Positions 39,194 through 57,560 of a stretch of 64,000 nucleotides of DNA are shown one piece after another (position 1 is the stretch's first letter; each line of letters opens with the position of its first letter). The DNA lies in the NCBI GenBank assembly GCA_016713325.1, contig JADJPJ010000002.1:62001-126000 (forward strand), read 5' to 3'. A model generated the notes under the pieces. It was not told where the DNA came from. It did not search any database and saw nothing but the letters and a program-made list of their open reading frames with translations. Origin of the DNA: Candidatus Flexifilum affinis (GTDB lineage Bacteria; Chloroflexota; Anaerolineae; Aggregatilineales; Phototrophicaceae). The position numbers and the translations under genes were made by a program.

Positions 39194-40438
39194 TTACGCG
39201 GACTTCTGAAGCAGCGCAGGGCTGACCTTGACCTGCACCAACCCGTAGGCCAGCATGCGCACTGGGACGCTCTTGACCAGCGGGATCTGGGTGAACCACC
39301 CCGCCATCTTCCGCCCGATCTTGCTGCCCATGCTGTTCTTGGCCGTCCGCTTGCTGGCGTTCTGGATCGACGCCTGGAAGCCCTGCGTGATCTTGATATC
39401 CCATTCCACCTTGCGCTGCACCTGGGCCAACTGCTCCTTGGTCACCGCGCCCTGCTTGAGCGGTTCGACCAGCAGGTTGGCGGCCACCACCGCGTCGCGG
39501 ATTGCCAGGTTGATGCCCACGCCGCCGACGGGCGACATGATGTGCGCCGAGTCGCCGATGAGCAGCAGGCCGTCGCGGTACCACTTGATGGCGCGCTTGA
39601 GGTCCACCGGCAGATAGGACAGATCTTGCCAGTCGATGGCCTTCAGGCGCTCGCTGAATTCCGGGATCAAATTGCGCATCAGGCCGCGAAAAACCTGGAT
39701 GTCCTGGGCGCGCAGTTCTTTGAAGCTGCCCTTCAGGACGGTCACACCGATCTGCCAGTCGCGCTCGTACGGCCGGCGGAACATGAACAGCGAGTTGTTC
39801 TCGTCCTGGCGGGTGTTCAGATCTTCCCTGGGGTCGAGGGCGTCATCCATCGGCATGCGCAGCCAGATGATGTCGTCCGGCTGATTGGTGAGCGTCTTCG
39901 TCTCGATGTCCGCCAGCTTGCGAATCGCCGAGTTCCGTCCGTCGGCGCCGATCGTCAGAGGCGCGCGCAGGGTCTTGAGGTCGCCATCGGCAGTGCGATA
40001 CTCGACGCCGCGGATGACGCCGTTCTCTTCGACCAGCCCGTTCACGCGGGCGCGCATCTCGATGGTGAAATTGGGATACTGGCTGGCCTTCCCGACCATG
40101 AAGTCGAGGAACAGCGACTGCGACAGGATCATCACGTAGGGATACTTGCTGCGCAGGATGTCATAGCTGAGCATGTAGGGAATCGTACCGGAACCGCGCA
40201 GGGTGGTGACCTTGCCGTGGGGGAGCGCCATGATCTCGTCGATCAGGCCCAGCTCTTCAAGCAGATTGAGCGCCAGCGGGTTCAGCGTATCGCCGCGGAA
40301 TTCACGGTTGAAATCGGCCTGCGCTTCGAGGAGATGCACACGCAGACCTGCCCGCGCGGCCAAATATCCGAAAATCACACCGCCCGGACCGCCACCCACC
40401 ACGATTGCATCGACATATTCGGCTTTGTTGTCCACCAT
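39194..40438 (-). CDS. FAD-dependent oxidoreductase, aromatic-hydroxylase (PHBH/UbiH) type
   Basis: A 414-residue flavoprotein of the group A monooxygenase/geranylgeranyl-reductase-like family. It has the GxGxxG FAD motif (IVVGGGPGGVIFGYLAARAG, residues 11-30), the second nucleotide site in IGADGRNSAIRKLA, and the GD motif LLIGDSAHIMSPVGGVGINL near residue 292. A basic C-terminus with hydrophobic stretches may touch the membrane. ATG at 40438 follows AAGGGA by seven bases, better than the GTG two codons upstream. It is the last of a leftward run with corrinoid-protein genes; its link to methyl transfer is unclear, and it may instead act on the demethylated product. The substrate is unknown. 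Confidence 0.82.
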   Translation of the reverse strand: MVDNKAEYVDAIVVGGGPGGVIFGYLAARAGLRVHLLEAQADFNREFRGDTLNPLALNLLEELGLIDEIMALPHGKVTTLRGSGTIPYMLSYDILRSKYPYVMILSQSLFLDFMVGKASQYPNFTIEMRARVNGLVEENGVIRGVEYRTADGDLKTLRAPLTIGADGRNSAIRKLADIETKTLTNQPDDIIWLRMPMDDALDPREDLNTRQDENNSLFMFRRPYERDWQIGVTVLKGSFKELRAQDIQVFRGLMRNLIPEFSERLKAIDWQDLSYLPVDLKRAIKWYRDGLLLIGDSAHIMSPVGGVGINLAIRDAVVAANLLVEPLKQGAVTKEQLAQVQRKVEWDIKITQGFQASIQNASKRTAKNSMGSKIGRKMAGWFTQIPLVKSVPVRMLAYGLVQVKVSPALLQKSA

Positions 40439-40546
40439 GACCACGTCCCTTGCCGGCTGAGAAGATCAGCCCTGCCAAATCCGAGGTAATGATGGACCTG
40501 TCGAGTAAGCGCCGGGTAAGATCCGTCTGAGAGTTGAGTGAACCTG

Positions 40547-41293
40547 CTACGGCTGCTCACTTTCCGCGACGATCAGCTTGTCGTCCACCGACTGGACGAC
40601 CCGGTGCCCTGGCGGAACAATCAGGAAGTCCTCTTCCGACCACTTCCCGTCCATCAGCATGTTGATCAGCCGACGGTCGCCCTCGCGCCGGTCGAAACGC
40701 CAGCCGCGCTGATCGGCCTGATCGCGCGCCCGCTGTTCGTAGGCGGCGCCATCGCCCAGGCCGGTGTCAATGTAGACGGCCCGGTTGTAATGCTTGCCCC
40801 ACTCGCCCATCACCTGCATCAGATAGTCGGCGTTCTCCTGGCCGTACTTCTCGATGTACTGCTGGTAGATCGACTCGCCGATCTCGATGCTGGCCGCGCC
40901 CAGGGCCACGCCGGAACTGGACGGGTTGCGCTCCAGGTAGTCCTGGCTGTACCAGTAGGTTCCGGGGAAACTGTCGAACTCCGCCTTATAGCGTTCGCGC
41001 GAACCCAGATACAGCGTGATGCAGTCGTGGGCGCGCGGCAGGACGAGCGGCGTGTGGTGGGAGGTCAGCCCGAGCGTGGCCGTGCCGCAGATGCCGTAGG
41101 CCAGCAGGATGGCATCGCACTCACCGGGGGCGATGGCGTCGATGGCCGCTTGCAGCTTGCCACGCAGGTTGCGCGGCGCGTTGTGCAGCCCCTGGTCGAA
41201 CAGGCGCACCGAGACGACGGGTTCGGCGACGGCCGCCGCCGCGTAGACACTGCGCGCCAGGGCGGAGCAGGTGAGTGCGATAAAGTGTGCCAT
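40547..41293 (-). CDS. DUF1638 protein
   Basis: A 248-residue cytoplasmic protein of the DUF1638 family, recognised by LLAYGICGTATLGL and LPRAHDCITLYLGSRERY near residues 63-100 and the later GTYWYSQDYLE. Function is not established. Members often sit beside corrinoid methyltransferase and activator genes, as here, where the homocysteine methyltransferase ends 5 bp upstream. Conserved Cys and His residues (YGICG, AHDC) suggest metal or cofactor binding. ATG at 41293 is the first start after the upstream stop; a longer minus-strand frame overlapping that gene is a shadow. Confidence 0.85.
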   Translation of the reverse strand: MAHFIALTCSALARSVYAAAAVAEPVVSVRLFDQGLHNAPRNLRGKLQAAIDAIAPGECDAILLAYGICGTATLGLTSHHTPLVLPRAHDCITLYLGSRERYKAEFDSFPGTYWYSQDYLERNPSSSGVALGAASIEIGESIYQQYIEKYGQENADYLMQVMGEWGKHYNRAVYIDTGLGDGAAYEQRARDQADQRGWRFDRREGDRRLINMLMDGKWSEEDFLIVPPGHRVVQSVDDKLIVAESEQP

Positions 41294-41298
41294 CTGGA

Positions 41299-42192
41299 CT
41301 ATCCTTCCTCGTGCAGCGCTTCGGCGATGGCGCGGATGTGCGCCGGGGTGCTGCCACAGCAGGCGCCGATGATCCGTGCGCCGCCGGCCTTCGCGCGCCG
41401 GGCGTAGTCGGCCATCACCGGCGGCGCGGCATCGTACACCGTCTGGTTGTCGACCATGCGCGGCAGGCCGGCGTTGGCCTTGGCGATCAGCGGCGCGCCC
41501 GGGTTGGCCTGGCTCATACGGCCGAGCGCGGCCAGCAGTTCGTCGGGGCCGTTGCCACAGTTGGCGCCGTGCGCAGCCAGACCGAGACCTTCGAACACGG
41601 CCGCAGCCTGCTCCGGCGCGGTGCCCATCATCGTCCTGCCATGCGTATCGTAGGTCATGGTCGCCACCAGCGGGACATCCGGCGCGACGCGGCGGCAGCC
41701 CTCGACGGCCGCGCGCACCTCGTTCAGGTCGGCCATCGTCTCGATCCACAGCAGGTCGACGCCGCCCGCGACCAGGGCCGCGGCCTGCTCGGCGAAGATC
41801 GTTGCCGCATCGTCCGACTCCAGGTCGCCCAGCGGGGCCAGCATCTGCCCGGTCGGGCCGACCGAGCCGGCGACGACCACCGGATGAGCGGCGCTGTCGG
41901 CGGCGGAGCGGGCTACCTGCGCCGCCGCGCGGTTGAGCTCCGTCGTGCGGTCGCCCAGGCCGTGCATGGCGAGGCGCAGTCGGGTGCCGCCGAAGCTGTT
42001 AGTCAGGATGATTTGCGCCCCGGCGGCGATGTAGTCGGCGTGGATCTTGCGGACGGCATCCGGGTTTTCGACATTCCACAGCTCCGGCGAGTTGCCGCGT
42101 TCCAGGCCGGCGGCGAAGAGCATGGTGCCCATGCCGCCGTCGGCGACGAGAGTGGATTGGGTTTCAAGAAGCTGGGCGAGTGAGACGGACAT
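41299..42192 (-). CDS. Homocysteine S-methyltransferase-domain protein
   Basis: A zinc-dependent methyltransferase of the Hcy-binding TIM-barrel family (the N-terminal module of MetH and BHMT), 297 residues. The three zinc cysteines are visible as C212 (GANCG) and C278-C279 (GACCG). Start-of-barrel VADGGMGTMLFAAGL and TNSFGGTRLRL are typical. It would move a methyl group from a methyl-corrinoid, a betaine-type donor or an S-methyl compound to homocysteine to make methionine. Its neighbours, a B12-binding protein and a RACo-type activator, argue for methyl-cob(III)alamin as donor. No pterin-binding methyltetrahydrofolate domain is encoded nearby, so the methyl source would not be folate. Confidence 0.88.
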   Translation of the reverse strand: MSVSLAQLLETQSTLVADGGMGTMLFAAGLERGNSPELWNVENPDAVRKIHADYIAAGAQIILTNSFGGTRLRLAMHGLGDRTTELNRAAAQVARSAADSAAHPVVVAGSVGPTGQMLAPLGDLESDDAATIFAEQAAALVAGGVDLLWIETMADLNEVRAAVEGCRRVAPDVPLVATMTYDTHGRTMMGTAPEQAAAVFEGLGLAAHGANCGNGPDELLAALGRMSQANPGAPLIAKANAGLPRMVDNQTVYDAAPPVMADYARRAKAGGARIIGACCGSTPAHIRAIAEALHEEG

Positions 42193-42229
42193 GATGGAGA
42201 TTCCTTCCTGAGCAATTGCTGCCGTCTGG

Positions 42230-44188
42230 CTATGCTCTGGCGGTCGATAGATGTGGAAAGTCGTCGCTGGCGTGGGGCAGGGCCATCGCCTCGACGAAAT
42301 GATCCTGAAAGGCGGGGTGGGCGGCCGTTTCGATGAACTCGGCGCGGCGGGCGAGGGCCGCTGCCTGACGCCGCTCTTCGGCGTTGAGCAGGGCCAGACG
42401 AGCGCCGTCGCCGGCGGCGTTGCCCACGGCGATCACCCGGCTGAGATCGCAGTCGGGGATCATGCCGATGGTCATGGCGTACAACGGGTCGATGTAGCTG
42501 CCGAACGCTCCAGCCAGGTGAATGCGGTCCACCTGCTTGAGGCCCATATGATCCATCAGCAGGCGCGCCCCGGCGTAGAGCGCCGCCTTGGCGAGCTGCA
42601 CGGCGCGAATGTCGAACTGCGTGATGATGATCTCCCGCCCGCCGGCCGTTTCGTCGGCCGGCACCAGCACGAACTCGGCGGTCTTGCCGGATTCGCCGGC
42701 CGGGCGCACCGCCGGATGTCGGTCGGTGGGCGGGAAGCGGCCGCTGGCGGCAACCAGCCCAGCGCTGTACAGCTCGGCCACGATCTCGATGATGCCCGAT
42801 CCGCAGATGCCGGTCGCAGCCAGGATCTGCCCAGGCGGCAGTTCGTCGCTCCAGCGTTCGTCGCCGATCACGCGATAGCGCGCCGCGCCCGTCTGGCGAT
42901 CGATGCGGAATCGTTCAATCGCGCCGACGGCTGCCCGCTGCCCGTGCTTAATCTGCGCGCCCTCGAAGGCCGGGCCGGTGGGGCTGGACGTGACCAGAAT
43001 GCGCCCTCCCGCCACCAGCATGATCTCGGCGTTGGTGCCGATGTCCAGGATGAGCAGGGCTTCGTCTTCCGGGAAGGGCATGCTGGCCAGCAGCGCCGAC
43101 ACGCAATCCGCGCCGACGTAGCCGGCGATGCAGGGCAGCAGATGGACCTGCGCGCCGCTGTGCAGCGCCTTGAGGCCGAAATCCTGCGCCCGCATGTCGA
43201 CGGCTTCCTCGGTGGCCAGGGCGAACGGGACGTGCCCCAGCTCGACCGGGTCGATGCCCAGCATCAGATGGTGCATGAGCGTATTGCCAACCAGCACGGC
43301 GTCGGTCACGCTGTGCGGGTCAATGCCGGCGCTGTGTCCGACGCCTTCGGTTAGGTCGTTGACGGCCTTGATGACAGCATGATGCAGCCGCCCCAGGCCA
43401 CCCGATTCGCCGTTGGCGTACGAGATGCGGCTCATCAGGTCTTCGCCATAGCGGACCTGCGGATTCATCATCGCCTCGCTGGCCAGCACGGCGCCGGTGA
43501 GCAAATCGCACAGGTGGCAGACGATGGTGGTCGATCCGACGTCGACGGCGATGCCGTACAGACTCTCGACGTAGCCCGGCTCGACGCGAATGACCCGGCG
43601 CTCGTTCCACACCGTGACCGTGACTTTCCAGTCGCCGGCGCGCAGAGAGGCCTGCAGGGTCCGCAGCAGCGGCGGGTCAATCTCCAGGTCGGCCAGCGTC
43701 CACTGCTCGGCGAGCGCCTGTTGCAGGCGCTGCCAGTCCGCCGCGCCGCCCAGTCCCGCCGGTTCGACCTCGACGTAGACCATCCGCACGGCCGGGGCCA
43801 CCTCGATGGCGATCTCGCCGGCGGCCTTGTGGATGACCTGCTTGCGGGCCAGGCTGGTCTCCGGAACGTGCAGCAGCACATCGCCGACGATGTGGGCGGC
43901 GCAGGCCATGCGGCACGTTTCGAGGTCCAGGTGGTGGGCCGAGGCATACGCCCGTTCGTCGTCGTTGGGCGGCGTAAGATGATCCTGTGCGGAGGTGATT
44001 CCGTGCTTGAGGAAGTGTCCTTGTTCGGGGCTGACCAGGCACTTGCCACAGGTCTGCCGGCCGCCGCAGATGGCCTCCAGGTCAATGCCGAGACGGCGCG
44101 CGGCGTCCAGAACGGTGAGGCCGGCGGGAATATCTCCCTGCCGGCCGGAGGGCATCAGTATGAGGCGGTGCGTTTGTTCGGACGACAC
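42230..44188 (-). CDS. RACo-type reductive activator of corrinoid proteins (ASKHA domain)
   Basis: ATP-dependent activator that returns inactive Co(II) corrinoid protein to Co(I). The 652-residue protein has an N-terminal [2Fe-2S] ferredoxin domain (C41, C47, C50 in CGGRQTCGKC and a fourth Cys near 112 in LETCRMAC). A linker follows, then an ASKHA ATPase core with YGIAVDVGSTTIVCHLCDLL near residue 210, LILDIGTNAEIMLVAGG near residue 375, and HLAGAFGSYIDPLYAMTIGM near the C-terminus. This order is that of RACo and RamA-related proteins. It lies between the B12-binding protein and the homocysteine methyltransferase genes, giving an activator matched to the corrinoid protein. ATG at 44188 is used. 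Confidence 0.9.
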   Translation of the reverse strand: MSSEQTHRLILMPSGRQGDIPAGLTVLDAARRLGIDLEAICGGRQTCGKCLVSPEQGHFLKHGITSAQDHLTPPNDDERAYASAHHLDLETCRMACAAHIVGDVLLHVPETSLARKQVIHKAAGEIAIEVAPAVRMVYVEVEPAGLGGAADWQRLQQALAEQWTLADLEIDPPLLRTLQASLRAGDWKVTVTVWNERRVIRVEPGYVESLYGIAVDVGSTTIVCHLCDLLTGAVLASEAMMNPQVRYGEDLMSRISYANGESGGLGRLHHAVIKAVNDLTEGVGHSAGIDPHSVTDAVLVGNTLMHHLMLGIDPVELGHVPFALATEEAVDMRAQDFGLKALHSGAQVHLLPCIAGYVGADCVSALLASMPFPEDEALLILDIGTNAEIMLVAGGRILVTSSPTGPAFEGAQIKHGQRAAVGAIERFRIDRQTGAARYRVIGDERWSDELPPGQILAATGICGSGIIEIVAELYSAGLVAASGRFPPTDRHPAVRPAGESGKTAEFVLVPADETAGGREIIITQFDIRAVQLAKAALYAGARLLMDHMGLKQVDRIHLAGAFGSYIDPLYAMTIGMIPDCDLSRVIAVGNAAGDGARLALLNAEERRQAAALARRAEFIETAAHPAFQDHFVEAMALPHASDDFPHLSTARA

Positions 44189-44297
44189 GACAACTCCCGC
44201 AGATCAGTCGACAGGGCTGATCGCGCTTCTTTCCCTATGCTGCTCAGCGCGCAAAATCCGACGATTCGCCGGGCGCTGGTTTCTGCTATTGTACCGC

Positions 44298-44930
44298 CTA
44301 AGCGCGGATCAGTTCGCGCACCTTACGCACCGCGCTGGAGGCATCTGGCGCGTAGCCGTCGGCGCCGATCTGCTCGGCATAGGCCTGGTTGACCGGCGCG
44401 CCGCCGATGACGATTCGCGTCTGGGTGCGCAGCCCGGCGGCGTCGATGGCGTCCACAACGCTCTTCATGTTCGGCATGGTCGTCGTGAGCAGGGCGGAGA
44501 GGGCGACGACCTGTGCGCCCTGGCGCACCGCTTCGACGAACTTCTCCGGCGCCACGTCGATGCCCAGGTCCATAATCTCGAACCCGGCGCCTTCCAGCAT
44601 CATGCTCACCAGCTTCTTGCCGATGTCGTGCAGGTCGCCCTTCACGGTGCCGATGGCAACGCGGGCGATGGGCTTGACTCCGGCCTCCGTGAGATAAGGC
44701 CTGAGGATCGTCAGGGCTCTGTCCATAGCGCGGGCGGCGATGAGCATCTCCGGGACGAAGGCGACGCCTTCCTCGAACAGTTCGCCGACACGCTGCATGG
44801 CGCTGATCAACCCCTGGTTGAGGATGACCTCGGCAGGTTCGCCCGCTTCGAGCGCCTGCTTGACTTTTTCGACGACGACATTGGCCTGGCCCTGGATGAC
44901 TCCTTGGCGAATTTCTTCTATCAGGGACAT
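44298..44930 (-). CDS. Corrinoid (B12-binding) methyl-carrier protein, MtbC/MtaC type
   Basis: A 210-residue carrier that shuttles a methyl group on a corrinoid between a substrate methyltransferase and an acceptor enzyme. A helical cap (residues 1-85, with EMLIAARAMDRALTIL) is followed by the Rossmann B12 domain with the cobalt-ligand motif GDLHDIG (D99, H101, G104), then LSALLTTTMPNMKSV and IVIGGAPVN. This matches the MtbC1/MttC family. ATG at 44930 is chosen over a TTG ten codons upstream because GGGGAAG lies just before it. No substrate-specific methyltransferase of the MttB or MtaB type is adjacent; the UroD-like pair at 53.9-56.2 kb are candidates. Confidence 0.93.
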   Translation of the reverse strand: MSLIEEIRQGVIQGQANVVVEKVKQALEAGEPAEVILNQGLISAMQRVGELFEEGVAFVPEMLIAARAMDRALTILRPYLTEAGVKPIARVAIGTVKGDLHDIGKKLVSMMLEGAGFEIMDLGIDVAPEKFVEAVRQGAQVVALSALLTTTMPNMKSVVDAIDAAGLRTQTRIVIGGAPVNQAYAEQIGADGYAPDASSAVRKVRELIRA

Positions 44931-44987
44931 CTCTTCCCCCAAACGATCACTGCACGACAAAAAACTGCTGCATCCCCAGCGGCGAAG

Positions 44988-46115
44988 TTAACTCGCGACC
45001 GGAGATACGGCAGAGGATTCCTGCACCAGCGCCTGACAGGATGCTCGCAAGACGAGCGAGGCCTGGAGCGCAAACTGCTCAAGATGATCATGTTCGCCGC
45101 TGATGCGCCGCAGCAGCAGTTCGGCGGCCGTCCGGCCGATTTGAGCGAACGGTTGGGCGATGGTCGTCAGCGGCGGGTCCAGATGCGCCGAAACGTCCAG
45201 ATCGTCGAATCCGAGCACCGACAGATCTCCCGGAACGGACAGTCCGAGGCTGGTCGCCGCGCGATAGATGGCGATGGCGATCTGATCATTGGCGGCAAAG
45301 ACGGCTGTTGGCCGGTCCGGGCCGCTCAGAAATTCGCGCAGTGGCGTCCGCTCGATCATCGGATAGCCCTCGACACGGCAGATCAGACGCTCGTCCAGCG
45401 GCAGACCGCGTTCCTCCACCGCCTGACGGTAACCCAGGAAGCGGTGTTCCATGCTAACCGCTGGCGACAGCCAGGTGATGAAACCGACACGCGTATGGCC
45501 CAGATTGAATAGGTAGTGGGTCCCGCGAATCGCCCCGTCAAAGTGGTCGGTCATGACGTAGTCGGTCGACAGCATGCGCAGGTAGCGGTCGATCAGCACG
45601 ATCGGAAAGCGCGCGTTGTTCAGGTTCTCGATCAGCGCGATGTACTCGGAGTTGATCGGGTAGAGGGCGATCCCCGCGACATTTTCGTCGATGAGCTTGA
45701 GGATCACCCGTTCCTGCTGCTGGAGGTCGTTGTTGACGTGATTGAAGATGACAGAGTAATTGGCCTGTTCGGCGACCTGCTGGAAGCCGACCAGGATGGC
45801 CGGTATGGACGAGTCGCGCACGTAAGGCACCACGAAGGCCAGGCGCTGCGATCGGCTGCGATTGGCGCTGAATTCGTGCCACTGGACGAACGTCCCCCGA
45901 CCCTGCTCGCGACTCAGATAGCCTTCTGCCTCCAGGCTGGCCAATGCCTGCCGCACCGTCCCGCGCGCGACATCGAACTCGGCGCACAGCTCTTTTTCAG
46001 ACGGAATGCTGCTGCCGTTGCTCCAGGTGCCATTGTGGATGCGCTTCTTGAGGATGGCGGCAACTTGAATGTGGAGGTGCGGCGCATCCGGGTTTCGATC
46101 AAGGACAATGGGCAT
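44988..46115 (-). CDS. AraR-like repressor: GntR DNA-binding domain fused to a LacI-type sugar-binding domain
   Basis: A 375-residue sugar-responsive repressor. Residues 5-75 are a GntR winged helix (SIPSEKELCAEFDVARGTVR, then QALASLEAEGYLSREQGRGT). Residues 90-370 are a LacI/periplasmic-binding-type domain (FVVPYVRDSSIPAILVGFQQ, AVFAANDQIAIAIYRAA, LSVLGFDDLDVSAHLDPPLT). This fusion defines the AraR type. ATG at 46115 is used; a TTG at 46133 would take in TTGTACAA, which may be regulatory. It lies between an alpha-mannosidase gene (89 bp upstream) and the corrinoid-protein gene (57 bp downstream), on the same strand. Its own promoter carries a GTCTATAC site, suggesting autoregulation, and related sequences occur at 48.96 and 56.2 kb. 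Confidence 0.9.
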   Translation of the reverse strand: MPIVLDRNPDAPHLHIQVAAILKKRIHNGTWSNGSSIPSEKELCAEFDVARGTVRQALASLEAEGYLSREQGRGTFVQWHEFSANRSRSQRLAFVVPYVRDSSIPAILVGFQQVAEQANYSVIFNHVNNDLQQQERVILKLIDENVAGIALYPINSEYIALIENLNNARFPIVLIDRYLRMLSTDYVMTDHFDGAIRGTHYLFNLGHTRVGFITWLSPAVSMEHRFLGYRQAVEERGLPLDERLICRVEGYPMIERTPLREFLSGPDRPTAVFAANDQIAIAIYRAATSLGLSVPGDLSVLGFDDLDVSAHLDPPLTTIAQPFAQIGRTAAELLLRRISGEHDHLEQFALQASLVLRASCQALVQESSAVSPVAS

Positions 46116-46147
46116 AGGTCTCAACTTGTACAACGGAAGACGAAAAG

Positions 46148-46189
46148 GTCTATACCTGTTACTCTACATCACATCGATTCCTTTGTCAA
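46148..46189 (-). promoter_or_regulatory. Promoter and putative operator for the AraR-like repressor gene
   Basis: On the minus strand TTGACA (46189-46184), a 17-bp spacer and TAGAGT (46166-46161) form a promoter. Just downstream is AGGTATAGACCT, whose plus-strand core GTCTATAC (46148-46155) fits the HutC-type GntR consensus GTMTAKAC exactly. TTTGACAAAGG at 46190-46180 recurs at 48940-48950 in the divergent mannosidase/importer promoter. A second palindrome, TTGTACAA, lies at 46126-46133. Binding is inferred. Confidence 0.6.
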
Positions 46190-46204
46190 ATGTTCAGACT
46201 TCGC

Positions 46205-48922
46205 TCACGAACTGGCGAATCCAGCCGGCTCCAGGCGAAGGGTGAACACCTCACCGGGCCGCACCTCAATCGGAATCGGTTGGCCGTCGGCGGCCGCCAG
46301 CGTCTCCAGAACCGTTTCGTCCATGCGCACACGTTCGGCGTGGGCCAGCGGCAGGCCGAAGGCGATTGTACCATTGATGGTGTGCGCTGTCGGGTTGTAA
46401 CCCCGGACAATCAGCACGCTGCCGCTCTGATAGACCGCGCTCAGGATCAGCGCCGGCGGATCGACATGCACGATGCTCAGCTCGGATGCCAGGTGACCAT
46501 TGCGCGGCCATGGCACCGGCTTGACCAGCGCCGGGTTATCCCGCGTGATGTTCATCTCGCGCAGTTCCAGGCCGGGGTGCGTATTGGCGCGGCGGACCAT
46601 CACCGGCACATTGTAATTATGCGCGCTGCGATAGGCATGGCGCCAGTCGCCGGCGTGGGTCAGAACGGCGTACTCATACGTATAGTCTTGCAGGCACTGT
46701 GCCCCAGGCGTCGGGACCAGCGGGCCGGCCGCGATGCGCCGCACCCACAGATCGTCGCGCGACAGCCAGCCGACGCTGCGCAGCAGGGTCAGGGCGATGG
46801 TGCCATCCTCGGTGACCTCCACCGATGGCAGGCCGCGGTTGAAAACGGCCAGTCCTCGTTCGCCATCGCTGAGGTCGGTGAACGTGCGCTGGTGCATGAG
46901 CGCGGTCGGGTCTTCTACCCATCCCGTCGAATCCGGCAGGCGCAGCGCCCGCTCGGCGACCATGAATGACTCGTCCACCTGGGCGTTCTCGGCCTGGATG
47001 CCGGAGGGGAAAACGACCGTGAGCTTGTGATCCTTGGCCTTGTTGGTCAGTTTGGTCGTGATGTACACGCCCGGCTGGCCGGCATAAACGTGGACATCGG
47101 TCGTGACCGGGATCTCGACCCGTTCGGCGCTGCGGCTCTGCCGGTCGTCGCTCAACTGCGCGGGCAGGCGCAGGGCGTGAGTAATGCGGAAGGCCGCGCG
47201 GCACGGACCGGCCTCGGTGCGGACGATCTCCGCTGTCGAGCCGGCGGTGGTGAACGGTTGATCGCCCTTCAGCGGGCAGAAGGTGTACTCGTCGCCCGCG
47301 TCGGCGACATCGTAAAGGTGCCCCAGCCCGGCGTAGGTGTGGCCGGTCAGTTTGTCGGTGAGGGTCAGACCGCCGTCGTCGGCGATCGTCAGCGACAGGT
47401 GGGTGTTTTCCGCTCCGCGTTCCGTGACCAGCAGGTCGGTTGAGGTTGGTTGGCCCGTGGGCGGCTGAATGGTGAAGGTGGTATAGCCGCACGAAGGCGC
47501 CTGTGCCGGGAACAGCACGTTGACGCGGCGCTTGCGATTCGGCTTGAGCACTTCCATCCAGAAAGTCTGCTCGTCGCCAACCACCTGGTGCGGAATCACC
47601 TCGCCCGCCGCGTTGACCACCTGGAAGTCATCCGCCGTGGCATCGTCGAAGTCGAAATCGATTACGCCTTCGACGACTTCCTTGCGCTCCCAGCCGAGCG
47701 GGTTGAAGGCGATGACCGGCAGGCCGTCGTGAGCGGTGAAGTTCACCTGACGCGCTAGGCGGCGCAGGCTGTCGCGCACCAGCGCCTCGCCGATCTGGCG
47801 GGACTGGCTGAAGCGGAAGTCCATCTCGTGATGCACTTCGTCGATGCCGCTGCCATAGATATCGTCATGCGGGTGGTTGAGCAGCAGCCAGTGCCAGGCG
47901 AGGTCGAGCATGTCCGGTATGCCGACGGGGGCTTGCGCGCCGGCCAGCCAGGCGAAGGCGGCCAGCGGCTCGGCGTAGCGCTCCAGCAGGGTTTCGCCGG
48001 CATGATTGGACTGCTTCAGATGAATGCGGGTGGAATAGACACCCTGAAGGATCTCGGAATATCGGCCCCAGCGGAATTCGCCGCTGAAGGTCGGGAGTTC
48101 AACGCCGGAGTCGCGCACGCGCGCCAGATGGTCGGCCAGCGTGCCCTGGACGATCTTGACGTCGGAAAGCTGCTCGTTGGCCTGGGTGATGATCGCCGGG
48201 ACGCGCGGCTCTGCTTCGGCATGGTCGATGCCATTCATCAGCAGCAGGGCATCGGTGTTGGCCATCGGCGTCAGCTTGTTCACGGCGCGTTCGATCTTGT
48301 CCAGCGCCAGTTCCATATCAAACGACATCTGCGAGGTATCGCCCCAGTGAATGCCGTAGCCCAGATTGGTGACGTTGTGGTATCCCCAGGGCATGAGAAT
48401 GGTGGTGACGTGGGTGCCGTCGGGCGCCGCCCAGACGAATTCCGTGCCCAGTTGGTTGCCCTCAGCGCCCATGCCGCGCCAGAAAAACGCATTGTCTATA
48501 CCAAAGCCGCGAAGGATCTGCGGAAGCTGCGCGATGTGGCCGAAACCGTCCGGCACGTAGCCAATTTTGACCACGCCGCCATAGGCTTTGCCCATACGGT
48601 GTCCCAAACGCCGTTTGCGGATGAGCGCTTCCGGGCTGACCAGGAATTCGTCGGCCAGCACAAACCACGGGCCGACCTGGATGCGCCCAGACCGGCAGTG
48701 CGCCCGCAGAACCTCTGCACGCCCCGGACGCGCTTCCAGATAGTCTTCGATCACACTCATCTGGCCGTCGAGCATGAAGCAGCGGAAATCCGGATACGCC
48801 TCCAGGATATTGAGAAGATTATCGACGAGTTGTACCAATCGCAGCCGAAACTCTTGAAAGGTACAGTACCATGCACGATCCCAGTGGGTATGACTAACCA
48901 GGGTAGCGTGAAATCGAGCCAT
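46205..48922 (-). CDS. GH38 alpha-mannosidase (MngB-like branch)
   Basis: A 905-residue cytoplasmic GH38 enzyme. Zn ligands lie in SHTHWDRAWY (H13, D15), the nucleophile in YVPDGFGHIAQLPQIL (D125), with LLLMNGIDHAEAEP and LLLNHPHDDIYGSGIDEVHH as further active-site segments. This set is typical of the MngB/YbgG-like branch that hydrolyses alpha-mannosyl glycerate or mannosyl oligosaccharides. It differs clearly from the GH38 at 36571-39084. ATG at 48922 begins directly before the first barrel strand (MARFHATLVSHTHWD); a codon further upstream at 48991 lies inside the promoter. It is divergent from an importer and followed by the AraR-like repressor and corrinoid genes. Confidence 0.9.
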   Translation of the reverse strand: MARFHATLVSHTHWDRAWYCTFQEFRLRLVQLVDNLLNILEAYPDFRCFMLDGQMSVIEDYLEARPGRAEVLRAHCRSGRIQVGPWFVLADEFLVSPEALIRKRRLGHRMGKAYGGVVKIGYVPDGFGHIAQLPQILRGFGIDNAFFWRGMGAEGNQLGTEFVWAAPDGTHVTTILMPWGYHNVTNLGYGIHWGDTSQMSFDMELALDKIERAVNKLTPMANTDALLLMNGIDHAEAEPRVPAIITQANEQLSDVKIVQGTLADHLARVRDSGVELPTFSGEFRWGRYSEILQGVYSTRIHLKQSNHAGETLLERYAEPLAAFAWLAGAQAPVGIPDMLDLAWHWLLLNHPHDDIYGSGIDEVHHEMDFRFSQSRQIGEALVRDSLRRLARQVNFTAHDGLPVIAFNPLGWERKEVVEGVIDFDFDDATADDFQVVNAAGEVIPHQVVGDEQTFWMEVLKPNRKRRVNVLFPAQAPSCGYTTFTIQPPTGQPTSTDLLVTERGAENTHLSLTIADDGGLTLTDKLTGHTYAGLGHLYDVADAGDEYTFCPLKGDQPFTTAGSTAEIVRTEAGPCRAAFRITHALRLPAQLSDDRQSRSAERVEIPVTTDVHVYAGQPGVYITTKLTNKAKDHKLTVVFPSGIQAENAQVDESFMVAERALRLPDSTGWVEDPTALMHQRTFTDLSDGERGLAVFNRGLPSVEVTEDGTIALTLLRSVGWLSRDDLWVRRIAAGPLVPTPGAQCLQDYTYEYAVLTHAGDWRHAYRSAHNYNVPVMVRRANTHPGLELREMNITRDNPALVKPVPWPRNGHLASELSIVHVDPPALILSAVYQSGSVLIVRGYNPTAHTINGTIAFGLPLAHAERVRMDETVLETLAAADGQPIPIEVRPGEVFTLRLEPAGFASS

Positions 48923-48940: not shown

Positions 48941-48969
48941 TTGACAAAGGGGCGTATTGACTATATATT
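48941..48969 (+). promoter_or_regulatory. Strong promoter for the Tat-type importer, with putative operator in the spacer
   Basis: TTGACA (48941-48946), a 17-bp spacer and TATATT (48964-48969): a near-consensus sigma70 promoter 84 bp before the binding-protein gene. The spacer contains GTATTGAC (48954-48961), seven of eight matches to GTMTAKAC, running into TTGACTATA. On the other strand a TTGTCT and TATATA pair 18 bp apart could drive the mannosidase gene, so the two promoters overlap back to back. A repressor bound here would block both. Confidence 0.7.
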
Positions 48970-49052: not shown

Positions 49053-50375
49053 ATGAAAAAAGATGAGCAGACGCAGTTGATGAAACGTGGGATGTCTCGC
49101 CGCATGTTCCTCAGGGGAACTGCCGGCAGCATCGCAGGCGCGCTGGCCGCCACCGGGCCCGGCAAATTCCTGTCCACCGGGATGTTCGCCCCCAATCTCA
49201 TCCGCCAGAACAATACGGTCGTTTTCGCCATTCAGGAGTTCGCCCATCCCGTCATTCAGGAGGTTCTGCCGCAGTTTGAGGCGGACACCGGCCTGACCGT
49301 TCAGCTCGAAGGTGGCCCGGTCAGCGGCAACGACATGCTCACCCGCTACAGCCCGGCCTTTGCCTCCGGCACCAGCCCGGTCGACCTGTTCAGCGATGCC
49401 GACGACAGCTCGCCGACCTTCATGCGCGCCGGCTGGGTCAAGCCGCTCAACGAGATCATCCCACAGGAAACCTGGGACGACTTCCCGCCCAGCATGCAGG
49501 ATCACATCCGCGGCTTCCTCAGCATCGACGACGTGCCCTATCGCATCCCGCACGAATTCGCGGTGGGCTACTTCTTCAACCGCCAGGACCTGCTGGATGA
49601 AAAGGGCCTGGCCATTCCGACAACCTGGGAAGAGCTGGTCGAGGTCGGCAAGGAAATGACCGACGCCGAGAACGGCGTGTGGGCCACCACCGACGCGCTG
49701 ATCAAGCCGGCGCTGCTCTACGTCTATGTCGCCTACCTGACCTCGCAGACCGGCGGTAAGGTCTTCGAGTTCGACGACGGCACAGCAGAGGCGCTCCAGT
49801 TCCTGTACGACATGATCCATACGCACAAGATTTTCCCGGAAGAGGCGCTCAACCAGGACTACACGGCGCAGAACAACCTGTACATGGGCGACAAGGTCGC
49901 CTTCATGCGCCAGTGGCCGTTCTTCCAGGGCGTCGCCGAAGGCAATGCCGAATGGTATGCGCCCGAGAAGATGGTCATCTCTCTGCCGCCGGCGGGTCCC
50001 GCGGGCAGCAAGAGCTGGATCGGCGGCTGGGGCTATTCGGTCCCGACCTATGCGCCGAACCCCGATGGCGCGGCCGCGCTCATCCAGTACCTGACCTCCA
50101 CGGAAATCGCGCCACAGTTGGCCGCGGCGCAGGGCTTCCTGCTCACGCCCCGCTACTCGATCCTGGAAGCGCTGAAGGACACTGGCGACGAACTGATCGC
50201 CGCCATGGGCCTGTATGCGGAAAACAACGTCTTCGCGCCGCGCGCCTTCCACCCGCGTGTCGCCGAGGCCCAGACCGTCGTCGACGATATGGCGTCGCTC
50301 TTCCTGACCAACCAGTCCAGCCTGTCCGAGGTCCTGGAGCAGGGCAAGTCGCTCATCGCCGCTCTCGACCAGTAA
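49053..50375 (+). CDS. Extracellular sugar-binding protein with a Tat signal
   Basis: A 440-residue family 1 solute-binding protein. Its N-terminus has a twin-arginine signal (MSRRMFLRGTAGS, R16-R17, with a modest hydrophobic stretch GSIAGALAATGPG), unlike the Sec signals of the other three binding proteins here. It would therefore be exported folded. The mature part shows QEVLPQFEADTGLTVQLEGG, WIGGWGYSVPTYAPN and the usual two-lobe pattern. ATG at 49053 lies nine bases after AAGGA. A 12-bp hairpin separates it from the permease genes. Divergence from an alpha-mannosidase/repressor run suggests a mannosyl or related cargo. Confidence 0.88.
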   Translation: MKKDEQTQLMKRGMSRRMFLRGTAGSIAGALAATGPGKFLSTGMFAPNLIRQNNTVVFAIQEFAHPVIQEVLPQFEADTGLTVQLEGGPVSGNDMLTRYSPAFASGTSPVDLFSDADDSSPTFMRAGWVKPLNEIIPQETWDDFPPSMQDHIRGFLSIDDVPYRIPHEFAVGYFFNRQDLLDEKGLAIPTTWEELVEVGKEMTDAENGVWATTDALIKPALLYVYVAYLTSQTGGKVFEFDDGTAEALQFLYDMIHTHKIFPEEALNQDYTAQNNLYMGDKVAFMRQWPFFQGVAEGNAEWYAPEKMVISLPPAGPAGSKSWIGGWGYSVPTYAPNPDGAAALIQYLTSTEIAPQLAAAQGFLLTPRYSILEALKDTGDELIAAMGLYAENNVFAPRAFHPRVAEAQTVVDDMASLFLTNQSSLSEVLEQGKSLIAALDQ

Positions 50376-52445: not shown

Positions 52446-53723
52446 GTGGAGCAGACGGAATCTATGGAAAGCACGACGCGTCACATCACGATTGAGCAGA
52501 ACACGGAGATCCTCAAGCGCTACGCCTTCCTGGAGAAGGCCTGTATGCGCACGCTCTCCGGTTGGCTGCCCGGCGTGCCGGAATGGGAGGCCAAGAACGA
52601 GATTGGCCTGCATCTGTGGGAAAGCGCCGATTCCGCCGACCAGCTTTATCAGCGGCTGCGCGAGCTGCGCGCCTATCAACCGGAACGCAAGCTGAGTGAA
52701 CGACTGCTCCGGTTGGGGCAGGCGCTCGACCGGGCGCAGAACAGCGCCGAGCTCATCGCCACGGTCTACCTGGTGATCCGCAAGCAGCTTCTGGAAGCCT
52801 ATCGCACGCATCCTGACGTGACCTGGAGCCAGTTCGACCGTCCTACCGTGAAGGTGACGGAGGCGGTGCTGCCGGCCATCGAACGGCAGGTTGCGTGGGC
52901 CGAGAAGTTCTTCCCCGAGGTGGCCGAACGCTACCCCGGCTGGGAGGCGTGGCGCGACTATATCGCCGGGCTGCTGGCGGCCGATGGCGGAGTCACCGGT
53001 ATGGAAGAGCCGGCCGCCGAACCCCAGGAACCCGCCGATCACCCGCTGCTGCTGCCCTGGAAGAACTGCCAGCGCATGCCCGGTTGGCCGATCTTCGACC
53101 CGTCCGTCGATGTCGAGCCGGATCGCAAGACGGAGCCGGAGGCCCACCGTCTCTGGCGTTTCAAGCACTATCTCAACGAGATGACGGCGGCGGAGACGCT
53201 CGGCTCAATCCTGTGGATGACGCCGGAGATGATCTGGGAATACCAGCATAATGTGGCGCGCCACTGCTGGGACGAGATTCGCCACAGCCAGCTCGGCATG
53301 GTCCGCATCCAGCAGCTCGGCCTGAAGGTCGAAGAGGTGCCGCAGGTCGTGCAGATCTACGACGTCATGATGACCCTGCCGGCCGTCGATCAGTACGCGC
53401 TGCTGACCACCGTCATCGAGCCGAACGGCATGCCGGAGAAGAGCGCCAACCGCGAGCACTGGGAAGAGATCGAGGACGACATCTCGGCGGCGGCGGTCAG
53501 CTATGACTGGTCCGACGAGAATTTCCACATCCGCTGGGGCAAGAAGTGGACCCCGGTGCTGCTGGAGACCTACGGCTACAAAGAGACTCCGGTCGAGATC
53601 GCCGCGCGCACCGAGGCCTGGCTCCTGGAGCATACGCCGGTCAAGATGCAGCAGAAGATGGCCGTCGCCGCGCACGAGACCGACAAGCCGGCCGACGGCG
53701 GCGACGCACAGCCGTACAGTTAG
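52446..53723 (+). CDS. Ferritin-like diiron protein of unknown function
   Basis: A 425-residue soluble, mostly helical protein. Ferritin-like metal-ligand patterns are visible: NEMTAAETLG near residue 245, HNVARHCWDEIRHSQLG near residue 275 (E-x-x-H), and SDENFHIRWGKKW near residue 356. They resemble DUF455-type ferritin-like oxygenase/oxidase domains. The N-terminal 230 residues are helical and Trp-rich, without a motif I know. GTG at 52446 and ATG at 52464 are both possible starts; the second has GGAA close by. The gene follows the importer by 20 bp and is convergent with the methyltransferase pair. A role in oxidising or demethylating the imported compound is conceivable but unproven. Confidence 0.65.
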   Translation: MEQTESMESTTRHITIEQNTEILKRYAFLEKACMRTLSGWLPGVPEWEAKNEIGLHLWESADSADQLYQRLRELRAYQPERKLSERLLRLGQALDRAQNSAELIATVYLVIRKQLLEAYRTHPDVTWSQFDRPTVKVTEAVLPAIERQVAWAEKFFPEVAERYPGWEAWRDYIAGLLAADGGVTGMEEPAAEPQEPADHPLLLPWKNCQRMPGWPIFDPSVDVEPDRKTEPEAHRLWRFKHYLNEMTAAETLGSILWMTPEMIWEYQHNVARHCWDEIRHSQLGMVRIQQLGLKVEEVPQVVQIYDVMMTLPAVDQYALLTTVIEPNGMPEKSANREHWEEIEDDISAAAVSYDWSDENFHIRWGKKWTPVLLETYGYKETPVEIAARTEAWLLEHTPVKMQQKMAVAAHETDKPADGGDAQPYS

Positions 53724-53886: not shown

Positions 53887-55044
53887 CTACTCGTACCGCC
53901 CGTACAGTTCCGCCGCTTCCATCATGGCGTTGATGTTCTCCAGCGGTGAACCGGGCGGGATGTTGTTGCCGTCCTGGATGATCAGCCCGCGCGACGGCCC
54001 CAGCTTCTCGATCACCTGGCGCACCGCCTCGCGCACTTGCTCCGGCGTGCCGCTGTGGATCAGCATCGGGTTGATGTTGCCGAGCAGCACTACCCGCCCG
54101 GCCAGCACCGAAGCGATCCGATCCAGATTGACCTGGTAGCCGAAACCCTGAAGCTCGTTGATTTTCAGATCGTCCCGGAAGATCTCCAGCAGGTGGTCCG
54201 ATCGGCCGCACATGTGCATGCTGAGCCAGCCGTCGAAATGGAAGCGCAGCTTCTGCTCGAAGGGCAGCACCAGTTCGCGGTAGCTGTCGGCCGACAGCGA
54301 CACAGCCAGGTCGTCGGTCCAGGCGAAGTCCTTCGGCGTCGGCAGCTTTTCTTCCTCCCAGCAGAAGTCCAGCCACTCGATCAGCTTGTCGGTCACGATG
54401 CGCAGCAGTTCGCGCGCGAAGTCGGGCCGTTCATAGACATCGGTGAACAGCTCGACCTGTCCCCTCACGTCGCCGGCCACGCCGAACGGCCCGTCCGACG
54501 TATGGGTCAGGTTGGGGTTGGCGCCGGGGTAGAACACCGGCCCGCCCTGGAAACGCACCGGGTACTTCTCCGCCACGTTCATCATGGCACGGCGATAGGC
54601 GATCTGCTTGCCATTGATGCCGCCGTGGACGAAGTCCATCGCCTCCAGCTTCCTGAGATCTTCGTCGGTATTCACCCAGCCGGGGCCGACCCAGGGGATG
54701 TCGTCATCCTGGAAGACGATCTCGCAGCCCAGGCTTCCGGATTCAAAGGTGTTCTGGAAGTCGGTCCACCCGCCGACCCACGCCCCGGTGATCGAGTAGG
54801 CGTCGGTGCGGATGTTCTCCATCAGCCACTTCTGCGCCAGGATCTGCGTGCGCAGCATGGTCTCCGGGTCGCTGTAGTAGTCGCGAAAGCTCACGCCGAC
54901 CTGCGGCACCAGGAAGCGGTGGGCGATGGCCGGCACCACCGGCACGCGATCGGGCGTCTCGAAGCGCTTGGTCCGGGCGATGCGCTCGCGCCGCGCCTCG
55001 ATCTCTTCGATCGGCACGGCGATCTCGATGATCTTCTCAGCCAT
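53887..55044 (-). CDS. UroD/MtaA-superfamily methyltransferase-like protein (second of pair)
   Basis: A 385-residue TIM-barrel protein of the uroporphyrinogen-decarboxylase superfamily, the group that includes MtaA/MtbA-type corrinoid:thiol methyltransferases. The zinc-type H-x-C pair is present in LSMHMCGRSD (H277, C279). The region that usually supplies the third Cys (GCGIPP in MtaA-like enzymes) reads IIQDGNNIPPGSPLENI, so the Cys is replaced by Asn. ATG at 55044 lies six bases after GGAGG and overlaps the upstream UroD-like gene by 8 bp, so the two are coupled and may form a heteromer. Uroporphyrinogen decarboxylation is unlikely because this gene has no heme-gene context. It is a candidate partner for the corrinoid protein at 44.3 kb. 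Confidence 0.82.
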   Translation of the reverse strand: MAEKIIEIAVPIEEIEARRERIARTKRFETPDRVPVVPAIAHRFLVPQVGVSFRDYYSDPETMLRTQILAQKWLMENIRTDAYSITGAWVGGWTDFQNTFESGSLGCEIVFQDDDIPWVGPGWVNTDEDLRKLEAMDFVHGGINGKQIAYRRAMMNVAEKYPVRFQGGPVFYPGANPNLTHTSDGPFGVAGDVRGQVELFTDVYERPDFARELLRIVTDKLIEWLDFCWEEEKLPTPKDFAWTDDLAVSLSADSYRELVLPFEQKLRFHFDGWLSMHMCGRSDHLLEIFRDDLKINELQGFGYQVNLDRIASVLAGRVVLLGNINPMLIHSGTPEQVREAVRQVIEKLGPSRGLIIQDGNNIPPGSPLENINAMMEAAELYGRYE

Positions 55045-56212: not shown

Positions 56213-56274
56213 TTGACTATACCTTTGCGCATTTCACTACGGACAATTATATATACAATTAGGCGACCGGCCAA
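56213..56274. promoter_or_regulatory. Divergent promoters with putative shared operator
   Basis: Minus strand: TTGGCC (56274-56269), 17 bp, TATAAT (56251-56246) for the UroD-like pair. Plus strand: TTGCGC (56225-56230), 17 bp, TATATA (56248-56253) for the Gfo/Idh gene. TTGACTATACCT (56213-56224), with GACTATAC matching GTMTAKAC at seven of eight positions, lies in the UroD leader and resembles the sites at 46148 and 48957. A direct repeat ACAATTA-TATAT-ACAATTA covers both -10 elements (56243-56261). Confidence 0.55.
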
Positions 56275-57455: not shown

Positions 57456-57534
57456 GGGATGCAGGTAGGTGAGGTTGAAGACGGGGCACCTGTGTCCGCT
57501 TGCCCAACGCTCTCCCTCATTTCTCGCTTCTCAT
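57438..57534. repeat. 22-nt inverted repeat spanning the Gfo/Idh stop
   Basis: ATGAGAAACGAGAGCTGAGG (57438-57457) and its neighbours pair with 57513-57534 (19 of 22 positions), leaving a 53-nt loop. The left arm covers the final codons and stop of the Gfo/Idh gene. It may act as a bidirectional barrier between convergent genes or be the remnant of an inverted duplication. Confidence 0.5.
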
Positions 57535-57560
57535 CTCTCATATCTTTGTTGTTCTCGCCC

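What the first reader, a model, noticed from the sequence alone, without database searches (positions are those of the whole stretch)
39194..48922. Corrinoid methyl-transfer set embedded in a sugar-responsive alpha-mannosidase gene run
Seven genes on one strand with gaps of 5-109 bp join a GH38 alpha-mannosidase and an AraR-like repressor to a B12 methyl carrier, its RACo-type activator, a homocysteine methyltransferase, a DUF1638 protein and an FAD oxidoreductase. Known corrinoid demethylation systems act on methanol, methylamines, betaines and aromatic ethers. The sugar-type repressor and glycosidase suggest here a glycan-derived methyl donor, for example O-methylated mannose. The donor is speculation; the gene order and motifs are visible.
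Basis: partly seen in the sequence, partly recalled or inferred. Interest (0 to 1): 0.75.

Follow-up and report, generated by a model that had tools for sequence, protein, structure and literature searches.

The report
Sugar-linked vitamin B12 methyl-removal gene cluster
A bacterium of the Chloroflexota keeps vitamin-B12 methyl-transfer genes together with a mannose-trimming enzyme and a sugar uptake system, in a pattern conserved in relatives, which suggests (not yet proven) that it strips methyl caps from methylated sugars.

Summary
The gene run is real: GH38 mannosidase, GntR/LacI regulator, corrinoid carrier, RACo activator, homocysteine methyltransferase and DUF1638, in one direction, plus an FAD oxidoreductase found in none of 21 relative loci compared. 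The six-gene block, with a divergent sugar ABC transporter, recurs in three other Chloroflexota genomes. In 81 genomes of the order, UroDb occurs in 15; all 15 carry this GH38, 8 of them with UroDb directly behind it. Genomes with UroDa or UroDb have RACo in 14 of 16 against 15 of 65 others, and a methyl-THF:corrinoid methyltransferase in 15 of 16 against 12 of 65. The ordinary alternative, a split methionine synthase (four genes match that of Phaeobacter), explains the parts but not the sugar linkage; all 16 of these genomes also have a MetH reactivation domain. Best reading: UroD enzymes move methyl groups from a glycan-derived O-methyl sugar (O-methyl mannose is the leading guess) to the corrinoid protein, then to homocysteine or folate.

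The parts
46205..48922 (-). GH38 alpha-mannosidase-like (GH38a), 905 aa, no signal peptide apparent by eye
   Evidence: PF01074 3.4e-36; nearest solved chains 5kbp, 3lvt, 2wyh (GH38 / alpha-mannosidase); HTHWDR motif
44988..46115 (-). GntR-type DNA-binding domain fused to LacI-type sugar-binding domain (AraR-like architecture)
   Evidence: PF00392 + PF13377; LacI/ribose/arabinose repressor chains, incl. 3tb6 arabinose repressor
44298..44930 (-). corrinoid (B12) methyl-carrier protein, 210 aa
   Evidence: PF02607 + PF02310; DLHDIG motif; tree
42230..44188 (-). RACo/RamA-type ATP-dependent corrinoid activator with N-terminal cysteine motif
   Evidence: PF14574, PF17651, PF17650; motif
41299..42192 (-). 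homocysteine S-methyltransferase (MtgE/Bmt-type methyl acceptor module)
   Evidence: PF02574 2e-76; NF005718 above cut-off
40547..41293 (-). DUF1638 protein
   Evidence: PF07796 2.8e-39; conserved downstream of HcyMT in L002, L003, L005, L006, L011, cut in L001
53887..55044 (-). UroDa: UroD-family protein, candidate substrate:corrinoid methyltransferase; overlaps the end of UroDb
   Evidence: PF01208 5.8e-30; start taken from the 385-aa model P0121; invariant HMCG and QDG in 25 homologues
55037..56209 (-). UroDb: UroD-family protein, candidate substrate:corrinoid methyltransferase, constant genomic partner of GH38a in the order
   Evidence: PF01208 1.2e-23; invariant H279-x-C281-G-G and D367-H368 in 40 homologues; profile's best solved chain is MtaA 4ay7
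49053..50375 (+). sugar ABC transporter solute-binding protein, divergent from GH38a
   Evidence: PF01547 7.2e-30; conserved in L001-L003
50577..51506 (+). ABC permease 1
   Evidence: ORF; conserved in L001-L003
51538..52425 (+). ABC permease 2
   Evidence: ORF; conserved in L001, L002 and L083 of G003
52446..53723 (+). ferritin-like DUF455-type protein, conserved beside the UroD genes
   Evidence: PF04305 1.2e-6, below its cut-off; homologues in L081, L082, L083, L092, L250-L252, L255, L257
46147..46156 (.). candidate operator GGTATAGACC just downstream of the regulator promoter
56214..56223 (-). candidate operator GGTATAGTCA between the UroDb promoter and its start codon
48957..48965 (-). 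weaker copy TATAGTCAA in the divergent GH38a/transporter promoter region

Best explanation
This is a sugar-regulated corrinoid demethylation system. The ABC transporter brings in an oligosaccharide; GH38a trims it in the cytoplasm; UroDb and/or UroDa (UroD-family, MT-I role) transfer a methyl group from an O-methylated sugar to the Co(I) corrinoid protein; RACo, with ATP, re-reduces the corrinoid when it is oxidised (DUF1638 helps in an unknown way); the methyl group leaves to homocysteine, giving methionine, and in relatives also to tetrahydrofolate through an MtgD-like enzyme elsewhere in the genome. The GntR/LacI regulator senses a sugar and probably controls the regulator-corrinoid transcript and the UroD transcript. 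Shown: gene content, conservation, linkage, co-occurrence. Inferred: that UroDa/UroDb are corrinoid methyltransferases, the direction of transfer, the sugar donor and its identity (terminal O-methyl mannose is the leading guess), and regulation.
For: Whole block plus divergent transporter in L001, L002, L003, with UroDb-UroDa beyond the transporter in G001 and G002. In the order (81 genomes) UroDb in 15, all with GH38a of at least 58% identity; 4-17 bp between match ends in 8, same contig within 18.1 kb in 13, different contigs in 2; UroDa on the same contig as GH38a in 9 of 11, under 115 bp in 5. RACo in 14 of 16 UroDa/b genomes against 15 of 65 (p=3e-6); MtgD-like in 15 of 16 against 12 of 65 (p=3e-8). 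Two genomes with GH38a but no UroDa/b lack RACo. In G139 RACo-HcyMT sits in one run with a UroD gene and sugar-type ABC genes; G322 shows the same run up to RACo. In the wider class, carbohydrate genes lie within 6 kb of 15 of 30 UroD-linked corrinoid genes against 5 of 67 others (p=6e-6; gene list picked after seeing the maps). UroDb keeps the H-x-C-G that aligns with MtaA. A MetH reactivation domain is present in all 16 UroDa/b genomes, so this is not their only methionine synthase. A fitting natural substrate exists: Chlorella N-glycans end in 3-O-methyl and 3,6-di-O-methyl mannose that resist jack bean alpha-mannosidase (PMC6344472 passages).
Against: No chemistry or expression data. Of the 11 UroDa genomes in the order sample only G001 has RACo next to the GH38/UroD genes; in the others it lies elsewhere or was not found. 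A corrinoid gene was seen in only 2 of 20 loci fetched around UroDb homologues of the class (a third, G109, has one just beyond). G440 and G445 have UroDb without a detected RACo. UroDa and UroDb are below the MtaA/CmuA family cut-offs; single-sequence searches score true UroD chains about as well as methyltransferases, and their third metal ligand differs from the cysteine I recall in MtaA. Genomes are related, so the Fisher values overstate independence. A test holding the window corrinoid protein inside the split-methionine-synthase clade is not rejected (p 0.26). The motif is mostly absent outside the close lineage.
Confidence: 0.55

Rival explanations
1. The corrinoid protein, RACo, homocysteine methyltransferase and DUF1638 are a split (second) methionine synthase of the Phaeobacter/Ruegeria kind, fed by methyl-THF through an unlinked MtgD; lying beside the mannosidase is incidental or reflects growth control.
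For: Four of the five genes supported by fitness data in P. inhibens are here (PMC5764234 passages); MtgD-like genes exist in G001 and G002 away from the block; other Chloroflexota loci show RACo-corrinoid-HcyMT, with a pterin-binding protein on the same contig in those checked; AU test does not exclude it (p 0.26).
Against: MetH reactivation domain present in all 16 UroDa/b genomes, so no evident need for a second synthase; no MtgD in the block; the window corrinoid protein falls outside the 23-row split-synthase clade and nearest to RACo- and UroD-linked ones in the tree; the block sits with sugar genes in four genomes (window, L001-L003); UroDa/b co-occur with RACo.
Confidence: 0.22
2. A UroD/corrinoid demethylase system that acts on a non-sugar methyl donor (aromatic methyl ether, methyl sulfide, haloalkane, or a methylated cyclitol) released from or eaten together with the glycan.
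For: The UroD-type donor enzymes named in the passages I read act on non-sugars (O-, S- and halogen-demethylases; PMC13222342 and PMC10418091). Some class loci pair UroD and corrinoid genes with Gfo/Idh/MocA and xylose-isomerase-like genes, which also suits methyl-inositols.
Against: UroDb directly follows an alpha-mannosidase in 8 of 15 genomes and sits with sugar transporters.
Confidence: 0.15
3. UroDa/UroDb are not methyltransferases at all but carry out another sugar-linked reaction; the corrinoid genes are an unrelated insertion in this lineage.
For: UroD is a broad fold; both proteins fall below named family cut-offs; corrinoid genes are adjacent only in the window lineage and a few others.
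Against: Co-occurrence of UroDa/b with RACo and MtgD; GH38-corrinoid-UroDb run in G010 (L089) and UroD x5-corrinoid in G109 (L195, L247).
Confidence: 0.08

Closest known systems
MtgBCDE + RamA + DUF1638 of Ruegeria pomeroyi / split methionine synthase of Phaeobacter inhibens (PMC12478193, PMC5764234)
   Same: Corrinoid protein, homocysteine methyltransferase (MtgE), RamA-like activator and DUF1638 are the same kinds of protein; there too one corrinoid core links a demethylase with methionine synthesis.
   Different: Their donor enzyme MtgB is of the MTTB family and acts on glycine betaine; here the candidates are UroD-family and sugar-linked; P. inhibens lacks metH, the relatives here keep a MetH; MtgD is not in this block.
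UroD-type corrinoid methyltransferase systems: CdmBCA, MtvB/OdmB/VdmB, MtoB, CmuA, MtaA
   Same: UroD-fold donor enzyme, corrinoid carrier, ATP-dependent activator; UroDb profile's best solved relative is MtaA 4ay7, UroDa's is CdmB 9rui, closely followed by true UroD chains.
   Different: Members named in the passages act on methoxy-aromatics, haloalkanes or thiols; similarity here is weak; linked to glycosidases and sugar transport; the acceptor gene in the block is a homocysteine methyltransferase.
Type 1 mlp gene clusters (MtaA-like proteins; PMC10418091)
   Same: UroD-superfamily methyltransferases outside methanogens with corrinoid proteins.
   Different: Proposed role is methyl-sulfur/methyl-selenide metabolism; the words sugar and Chloroflex do not occur in its main text.
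GH38 alpha-mannosidases (2wyh, 3lvt, 5kbp; from Gram-positive cocci, recalled)
   Same: Domains, HTHWDR motif, overall similarity.
   Different: Here paired with UroD genes.

Membership tests
Split methionine synthase (P. inhibens type) | Separate homocysteine methyltransferase module (PF02574) | tested here: met
Split methionine synthase (P. inhibens type) | Separate corrinoid protein, RamA-like activator and DUF1638 | tested here: met
Split methionine synthase (P. inhibens type) | Separate methyl-THF (pterin) methyltransferase in the genome | tested here: inconclusive
   not in the block; window genome not held; present away from the block in G001 and G002, only the MetH copy found in G003-G006
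Split methionine synthase (P. inhibens type) | Stands in for classical MetH (no PF02965) | tested here: not met
   PF02965 is present in the nearest held genome, G001, and in all 16 UroDa/b genomes of the order; the window's own genome could not be searched
Split methionine synthase (P. inhibens type) | Corrinoid protein belongs with split-synthase corrinoid proteins | tested here: inconclusive
   outside that clade in the tree; AU test p 0.26
UroD-type corrinoid demethylase system | UroD-family donor enzyme in the locus | tested here: met
   UroDa, UroDb PF01208
UroD-type corrinoid demethylase system | Corrinoid carrier and ATP-dependent activator | tested here: met
UroD-type corrinoid demethylase system | Second methyltransferase to THF or a thiol | tested here: met
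   homocysteine methyltransferase in the block; MtgD-like in 15 of 16 UroDa/b genomes of the order
UroD-type corrinoid demethylase system | Metal-binding H-x-C...C of MtaA-like members (ligands recalled) | tested here: inconclusive
   H-x-C invariant in both; third position is D/H or D; some members need no zinc (PMC13222342)
UroD-type corrinoid demethylase system | Methyl-Co(III) formation from a defined donor | not testable with these tools
   needs purified proteins
MTTB-type demethylase (MtgB) | PF06253 protein | tested here: not met
   none among 28 window proteins scanned with Pfam; not every ORF of the window was scanned
AraR-type sugar repressor | GntR HTH plus LacI-type effector domain | tested here: met
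AraR-type sugar repressor | Sugar effector | not testable with these tools
   needs binding assays

The most novel reading that the evidence does not exclude
UroDb/UroDa are the first vitamin-B12-dependent O-demethylases of sugars: they remove methyl caps from mannose (for example from algal N-glycans) so that the partner alpha-mannosidase can proceed, and pass the methyl group to methionine or folate. The many other UroD-corrinoid-sugar clusters of the Chloroflexota would then be a family of such enzymes for other methylated sugars or cyclitols, giving a function to large unassigned UroD clades.
Probability: 0.4. Interest if true: 0.85.

Novelty: new variant of a known kind. Interest (0 to 1): 0.68.

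Why it matters
O-methyl mannose caps the N-glycans of several algae, and in Chlorella the methylation gave resistance to an alpha-mannosidase (PMC6344472 passages). The enzymatic way I recall for opening a sugar methyl ether is oxidative (P450 on 6-O-methyl-galactose; recalled, no call). A corrinoid route would work without oxygen and would save the methyl group. The linkage also offers a testable function for UroD-superfamily proteins of unknown substrate, and one carrier organism, Aggregatilinea lenta (identified by inference), is in culture (recalled).

Tried and rejected
Considered and lowered: (1) plain split methionine synthase, see rivals. (2) FAD oxidoreductase as part of the system: no hit in 21 relative loci. 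(3) A single operon of seven genes: a promoter-like site before the regulator makes two transcripts likely. (4) A simple AraR-type palindrome TTTGTN4ACAAA as operator: 8 matches with up to 2 mismatches against 5.7 expected, no excess. (5) DHPS (FolP) as the explanation of the standalone pterin-binding proteins in G001/G002: NCBIfam names the G002 protein as methyl-THF:corrinoid methyltransferase just above cut-off (260.8 against 259); the G001 protein is 93% identical. (6) Structures of UroDa/UroDb: not possible, the predictor was switched off; fold search was therefore not used. (7) Literature searches for a corrinoid sugar demethylase: (13, 82 and 96 gave no paper); none of the listings named one, but only open-licence PMC papers are held and most listed papers were not opened. 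Dropped before a count: a 125-residue GH38a-like fragment of G435 (79% identity) was left out of the 17; G435 has no UroDa, UroDb or RACo at the thresholds used, so with it the figures are 15 of 18. The list of carbohydrate genes was chosen after the maps had been seen, so that test is exploratory. Mistake made and mended: the DUF1638 query was out of frame; corrected coordinates (40547-41293) were used from then on. Not used: viral-contig scans, the padloc and phrogs libraries, Rfam, the third protein search.


Full report
OBSERVATION. The gene run exists as described (details in the observation check). Motifs expected for function are present: D-L-H-D-I-G for His-on corrinoid binding, C-x5-C-x2-C in the activator, NCG and CCG in the homocysteine methyltransferase, HTHWDR in the GH38 (what these motifs mean is recalled knowledge).

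Four of the genes match the split methionine synthase of Phaeobacter inhibens: PF02574 protein, corrinoid protein, ferredoxin/DUF4445 (RamA-like) protein and DUF1638, whose mutants there are rescued by methionine (PMC5764234, passages read). [quoted passage not shown] So the parts by themselves do not prove demethylation.

CONSERVATION OF THE BLOCK. A scan of GTDB species genomes with the homocysteine methyltransferase kept the best 80 loci of 137 confirmed. Of the 80, three (L001, L002, L003; 80, 77 and 66% identity) carry GH38a-regulator-corrinoid-RACo-HcyMT in the same order with the divergent sugar transporter; in L003 some 1.4 kb lie between the corrinoid and RACo frames. DUF1638 follows in all three, cut by the contig end in L001. 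A RACo match occurs in 21 of the 80 loci; many loci are cut by contig ends. L005 has corrinoid(-)/RACo-HcyMT-DUF1638(+) with sugar-type transporter genes upstream; L006, L011 and L015 have RACo-HcyMT without GH38a in the fetched stretch. The FAD gene is in none of 21 loci compared.

NOT THE HOUSEKEEPING METHIONINE SYNTHASE. All seven genomes of this first group (G001-G007) carry a pterin-binding domain inside a 1194-1244 aa MetH-like frame, and PF02965, the MetH reactivation domain, is in 73 of 81 genomes of the order of G001, including all 16 with UroDa or UroDb. In nine genomes examined there is one RACo gene each (G003 gives two adjacent matches, see noticed items). The window's own genome is not held, so this rests on relatives.

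THE LIKELY DONOR ENZYMES. UroDb (56209-55037) and UroDa (55044-53887) lie on the same strand as the corrinoid genes, beyond the transporter. The arrangement UroDb-UroDa-(a third, UroDc, not seen in the window)-DUF455-transporter//GH38a-regulator-corrinoid-RACo-HcyMT is the same in G001 (L081) and G002 (L082, L002); in G003 its pieces lie on two contigs (L003/L083 and L091). UroDb has invariant H279-x-C281-G-G and D367-H368 in 40 aligned homologues, UroDa invariant H-M-C-G and Q-D-G in 25 (40 of 120 and 25 of 120 listed hits used). The UroDb profile's best solved relative is the methylcobalamin:CoM methyltransferase MtaA (4ay7, E 1.7e-6), with the H-x-C-G aligned; as a single sequence it matches a true UroD (4wsh) and MtaA about equally weakly. 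UroDa's best is CdmB (9rui, 1.9e-6), closely followed by true UroD chains. Neither reaches a named-family cut-off.

LINKAGE ACROSS THE ORDER. In 81 genomes of the order: RACo 29, UroDa 11, close GH38a (at least 58% identity over most of the protein, my reading of the rows) 17 (a 79% fragment in G435 left out), UroDb 15. All 15 UroDb genomes have GH38a. UroDb lies 4-17 bp from GH38a (between match ends) in 8 of 15, within 18.1 kb on the same contig in 13 of 15, and on different contigs in 2 of 15 (G445, G405). UroDa lies on the same contig as GH38a in 9 of 11, under 115 bp away in 5; in G445 they are on different contigs and G430 has no close GH38a. RACo is in 14 of 16 genomes with UroDa or UroDb and 15 of 65 without (Fisher p 3.2e-6); the methyl-THF:corrinoid methyltransferase (MtgD-like) is in 15 of 16 and 12 of 65 (p 2.8e-8). 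The two of the 17 GH38a genomes with neither UroD (G407, G095) lack RACo. In G434 (inferred to be Aggregatilinea lenta) one stretch holds SBP-UroDb-GH38a, transporter, UroD, DUF455, UroDa, UroDc, a GH31-family gene (PF01055) and a GntR-type regulator, and a second holds corrinoid-DUF1638-RACo followed by MtgD. In G139 a run reads SBP (weak match)-permease-permease-UroD-RACo-HcyMT; in G322 the same run is read up to RACo, the next frame not being called as HcyMT by my script. Genomes share ancestry, so the true significance is weaker than these p values.

LINKAGE IN THE WIDER CLASS. Corrinoid-protein homologues occur in 129 of 150 genomes drawn from the class. I fetched 100 regions around listed hits (chosen from the listing, not at random); 95 of 100 gave 97 corrinoid genes by my caller: 30 have a UroD gene within 2.5 kb, 14 an MTTB gene, 10 methionine-synthase-type genes, 43 none of these. 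Carbohydrate genes lie within 6 kb of 15 of the 30 and 5 of the other 67 (p 5.9e-6; the gene list was chosen after seeing the maps). UroDb homologues at E 1e-50 or better occur in 43 of 396 class genomes. Of 20 loci fetched around the best of them (G001 and G010 aside), I read sugar-type transport, kinase/isomerase or glycosidase-like neighbours in 12, a GH38 homologue in 4 and a corrinoid gene in 2. G010 (L089) has GH38-corrinoid-UroDb in a row; G109 (L247, L195) has GH38, regulator, transporter, five UroD genes and a corrinoid gene.

WHICH CORRINOID PROTEIN. In a quick tree of 122 corrinoid proteins, one clade of 23 rows (support 100) holds 18 of the 23 rows that I had labelled as next to methionine-synthase-type genes, plus 5 others; the remaining 5 so-labelled rows lie elsewhere. 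The window's protein and its three block counterparts lie outside it, nearest to the A. lenta protein and a UroD-linked one (L087), with moderate support (82-85). Holding them inside that clade costs 22.7 log units but is not rejected (p-AU 0.26).

REGULATION. A motif GGTATAGWC lies just after the regulator promoter (46147-46156) and between promoter and start of UroDb (56214-56223), with a weaker copy between GH38a and the transporter (48957-48965). Counts in the window are 10 with up to one mismatch against 1.3 expected (most of the one-mismatch hits are away from these promoters) and 3 against 0.2 for TATAGWCMA, one of them inside GH38a. With the looser expression the window also has hits inside coding sequence at 48493 and 61105. 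Counterparts: regulator promoter in L081 and L002, UroDb in L082 and L091, GH38a in L003, between DUF455 and UroDa-GH38a in L092. Background in the other loci is 34 in 2.71 Mb, 0.80 per 64 kb. The motif was read from these same promoters, and of ten more distant loci (L249-L258) only L255 has a copy in a promoter position. I call it a candidate operator of the close lineage only.

WHY A METHYLATED SUGAR. [quoted passage not shown] the same paper cites 6-O-methyl mannose in Porphyridium and Chlamydomonas (PMC6344472, passages read). Papers on mosses, molluscs and a diatom also hold the term (search listing only). A mannosidase whose partner removes methyl caps would make sense; this is inference.

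VERDICT. What is new is the constant GH38a-UroDb pair and its co-occurrence with corrinoid machinery. The donor remains to be shown.

Noticed in passing
window 16549-22407: NAD-linked formate dehydrogenase set (FdhA over the NCBIfam cut-off, NuoE/F-like fusion, further ferredoxin-like and FdhD-like frames by eye); it could oxidise C1 units from demethylation, but no link was tested.
   Followed up: partly
window 39194-40444: FAD-binding oxidoreductase (PF01494) behind DUF1638, absent from all 21 relative loci compared.
   Followed up: yes
window 52446-53723: Ferritin-like DUF455-type protein is conserved beside UroD genes in relatives (e.g. L081, L082, L092, L250, L251, L255, L257); its role is unknown.
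   Followed up: partly
L133, L141, L142, L212 (UroD-corrinoid clusters): A recurrent set of UroD and corrinoid genes with an FGGY kinase, a galactokinase-like kinase, xylose-isomerase-like TIM barrels and (in three of the four) Gfo/Idh/MocA-type genes; perhaps another methylated sugar or a methyl-inositol.
   Followed up: partly
L154, L165, L169: Corrinoid gene, UroD, L-fucose-isomerase-like gene and sugar-type ABC transporter genes together in three genomes.
   Followed up: partly
L086 (G001:C291:219-6199): Four UroD genes around a corrinoid gene in the nearest relative, on a different contig from the block.
   Followed up: no
L085 (G005:C202): A homologue of the window's other GH38 (36571-39084) and sugar ABC genes lie about 10 kb from the corrinoid gene of G005.
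   Followed up: no
window 56322-63957: Gfo/Idh/MocA dehydrogenase, beta-helix protein, a weakly DUF6259-like protein and a second sugar ABC transporter; the part up to the first permease keeps the same order next to UroDb in L082.
   Followed up: partly
G003:C381:14246-15044 (L003): RACo of G003 gives two adjacent matches, so that copy may be frameshifted or misassembled.
   Followed up: no
window 4286-5293: Mannonate dehydratase (UxuA), so hexuronate breakdown genes are nearby as well.
   Followed up: no
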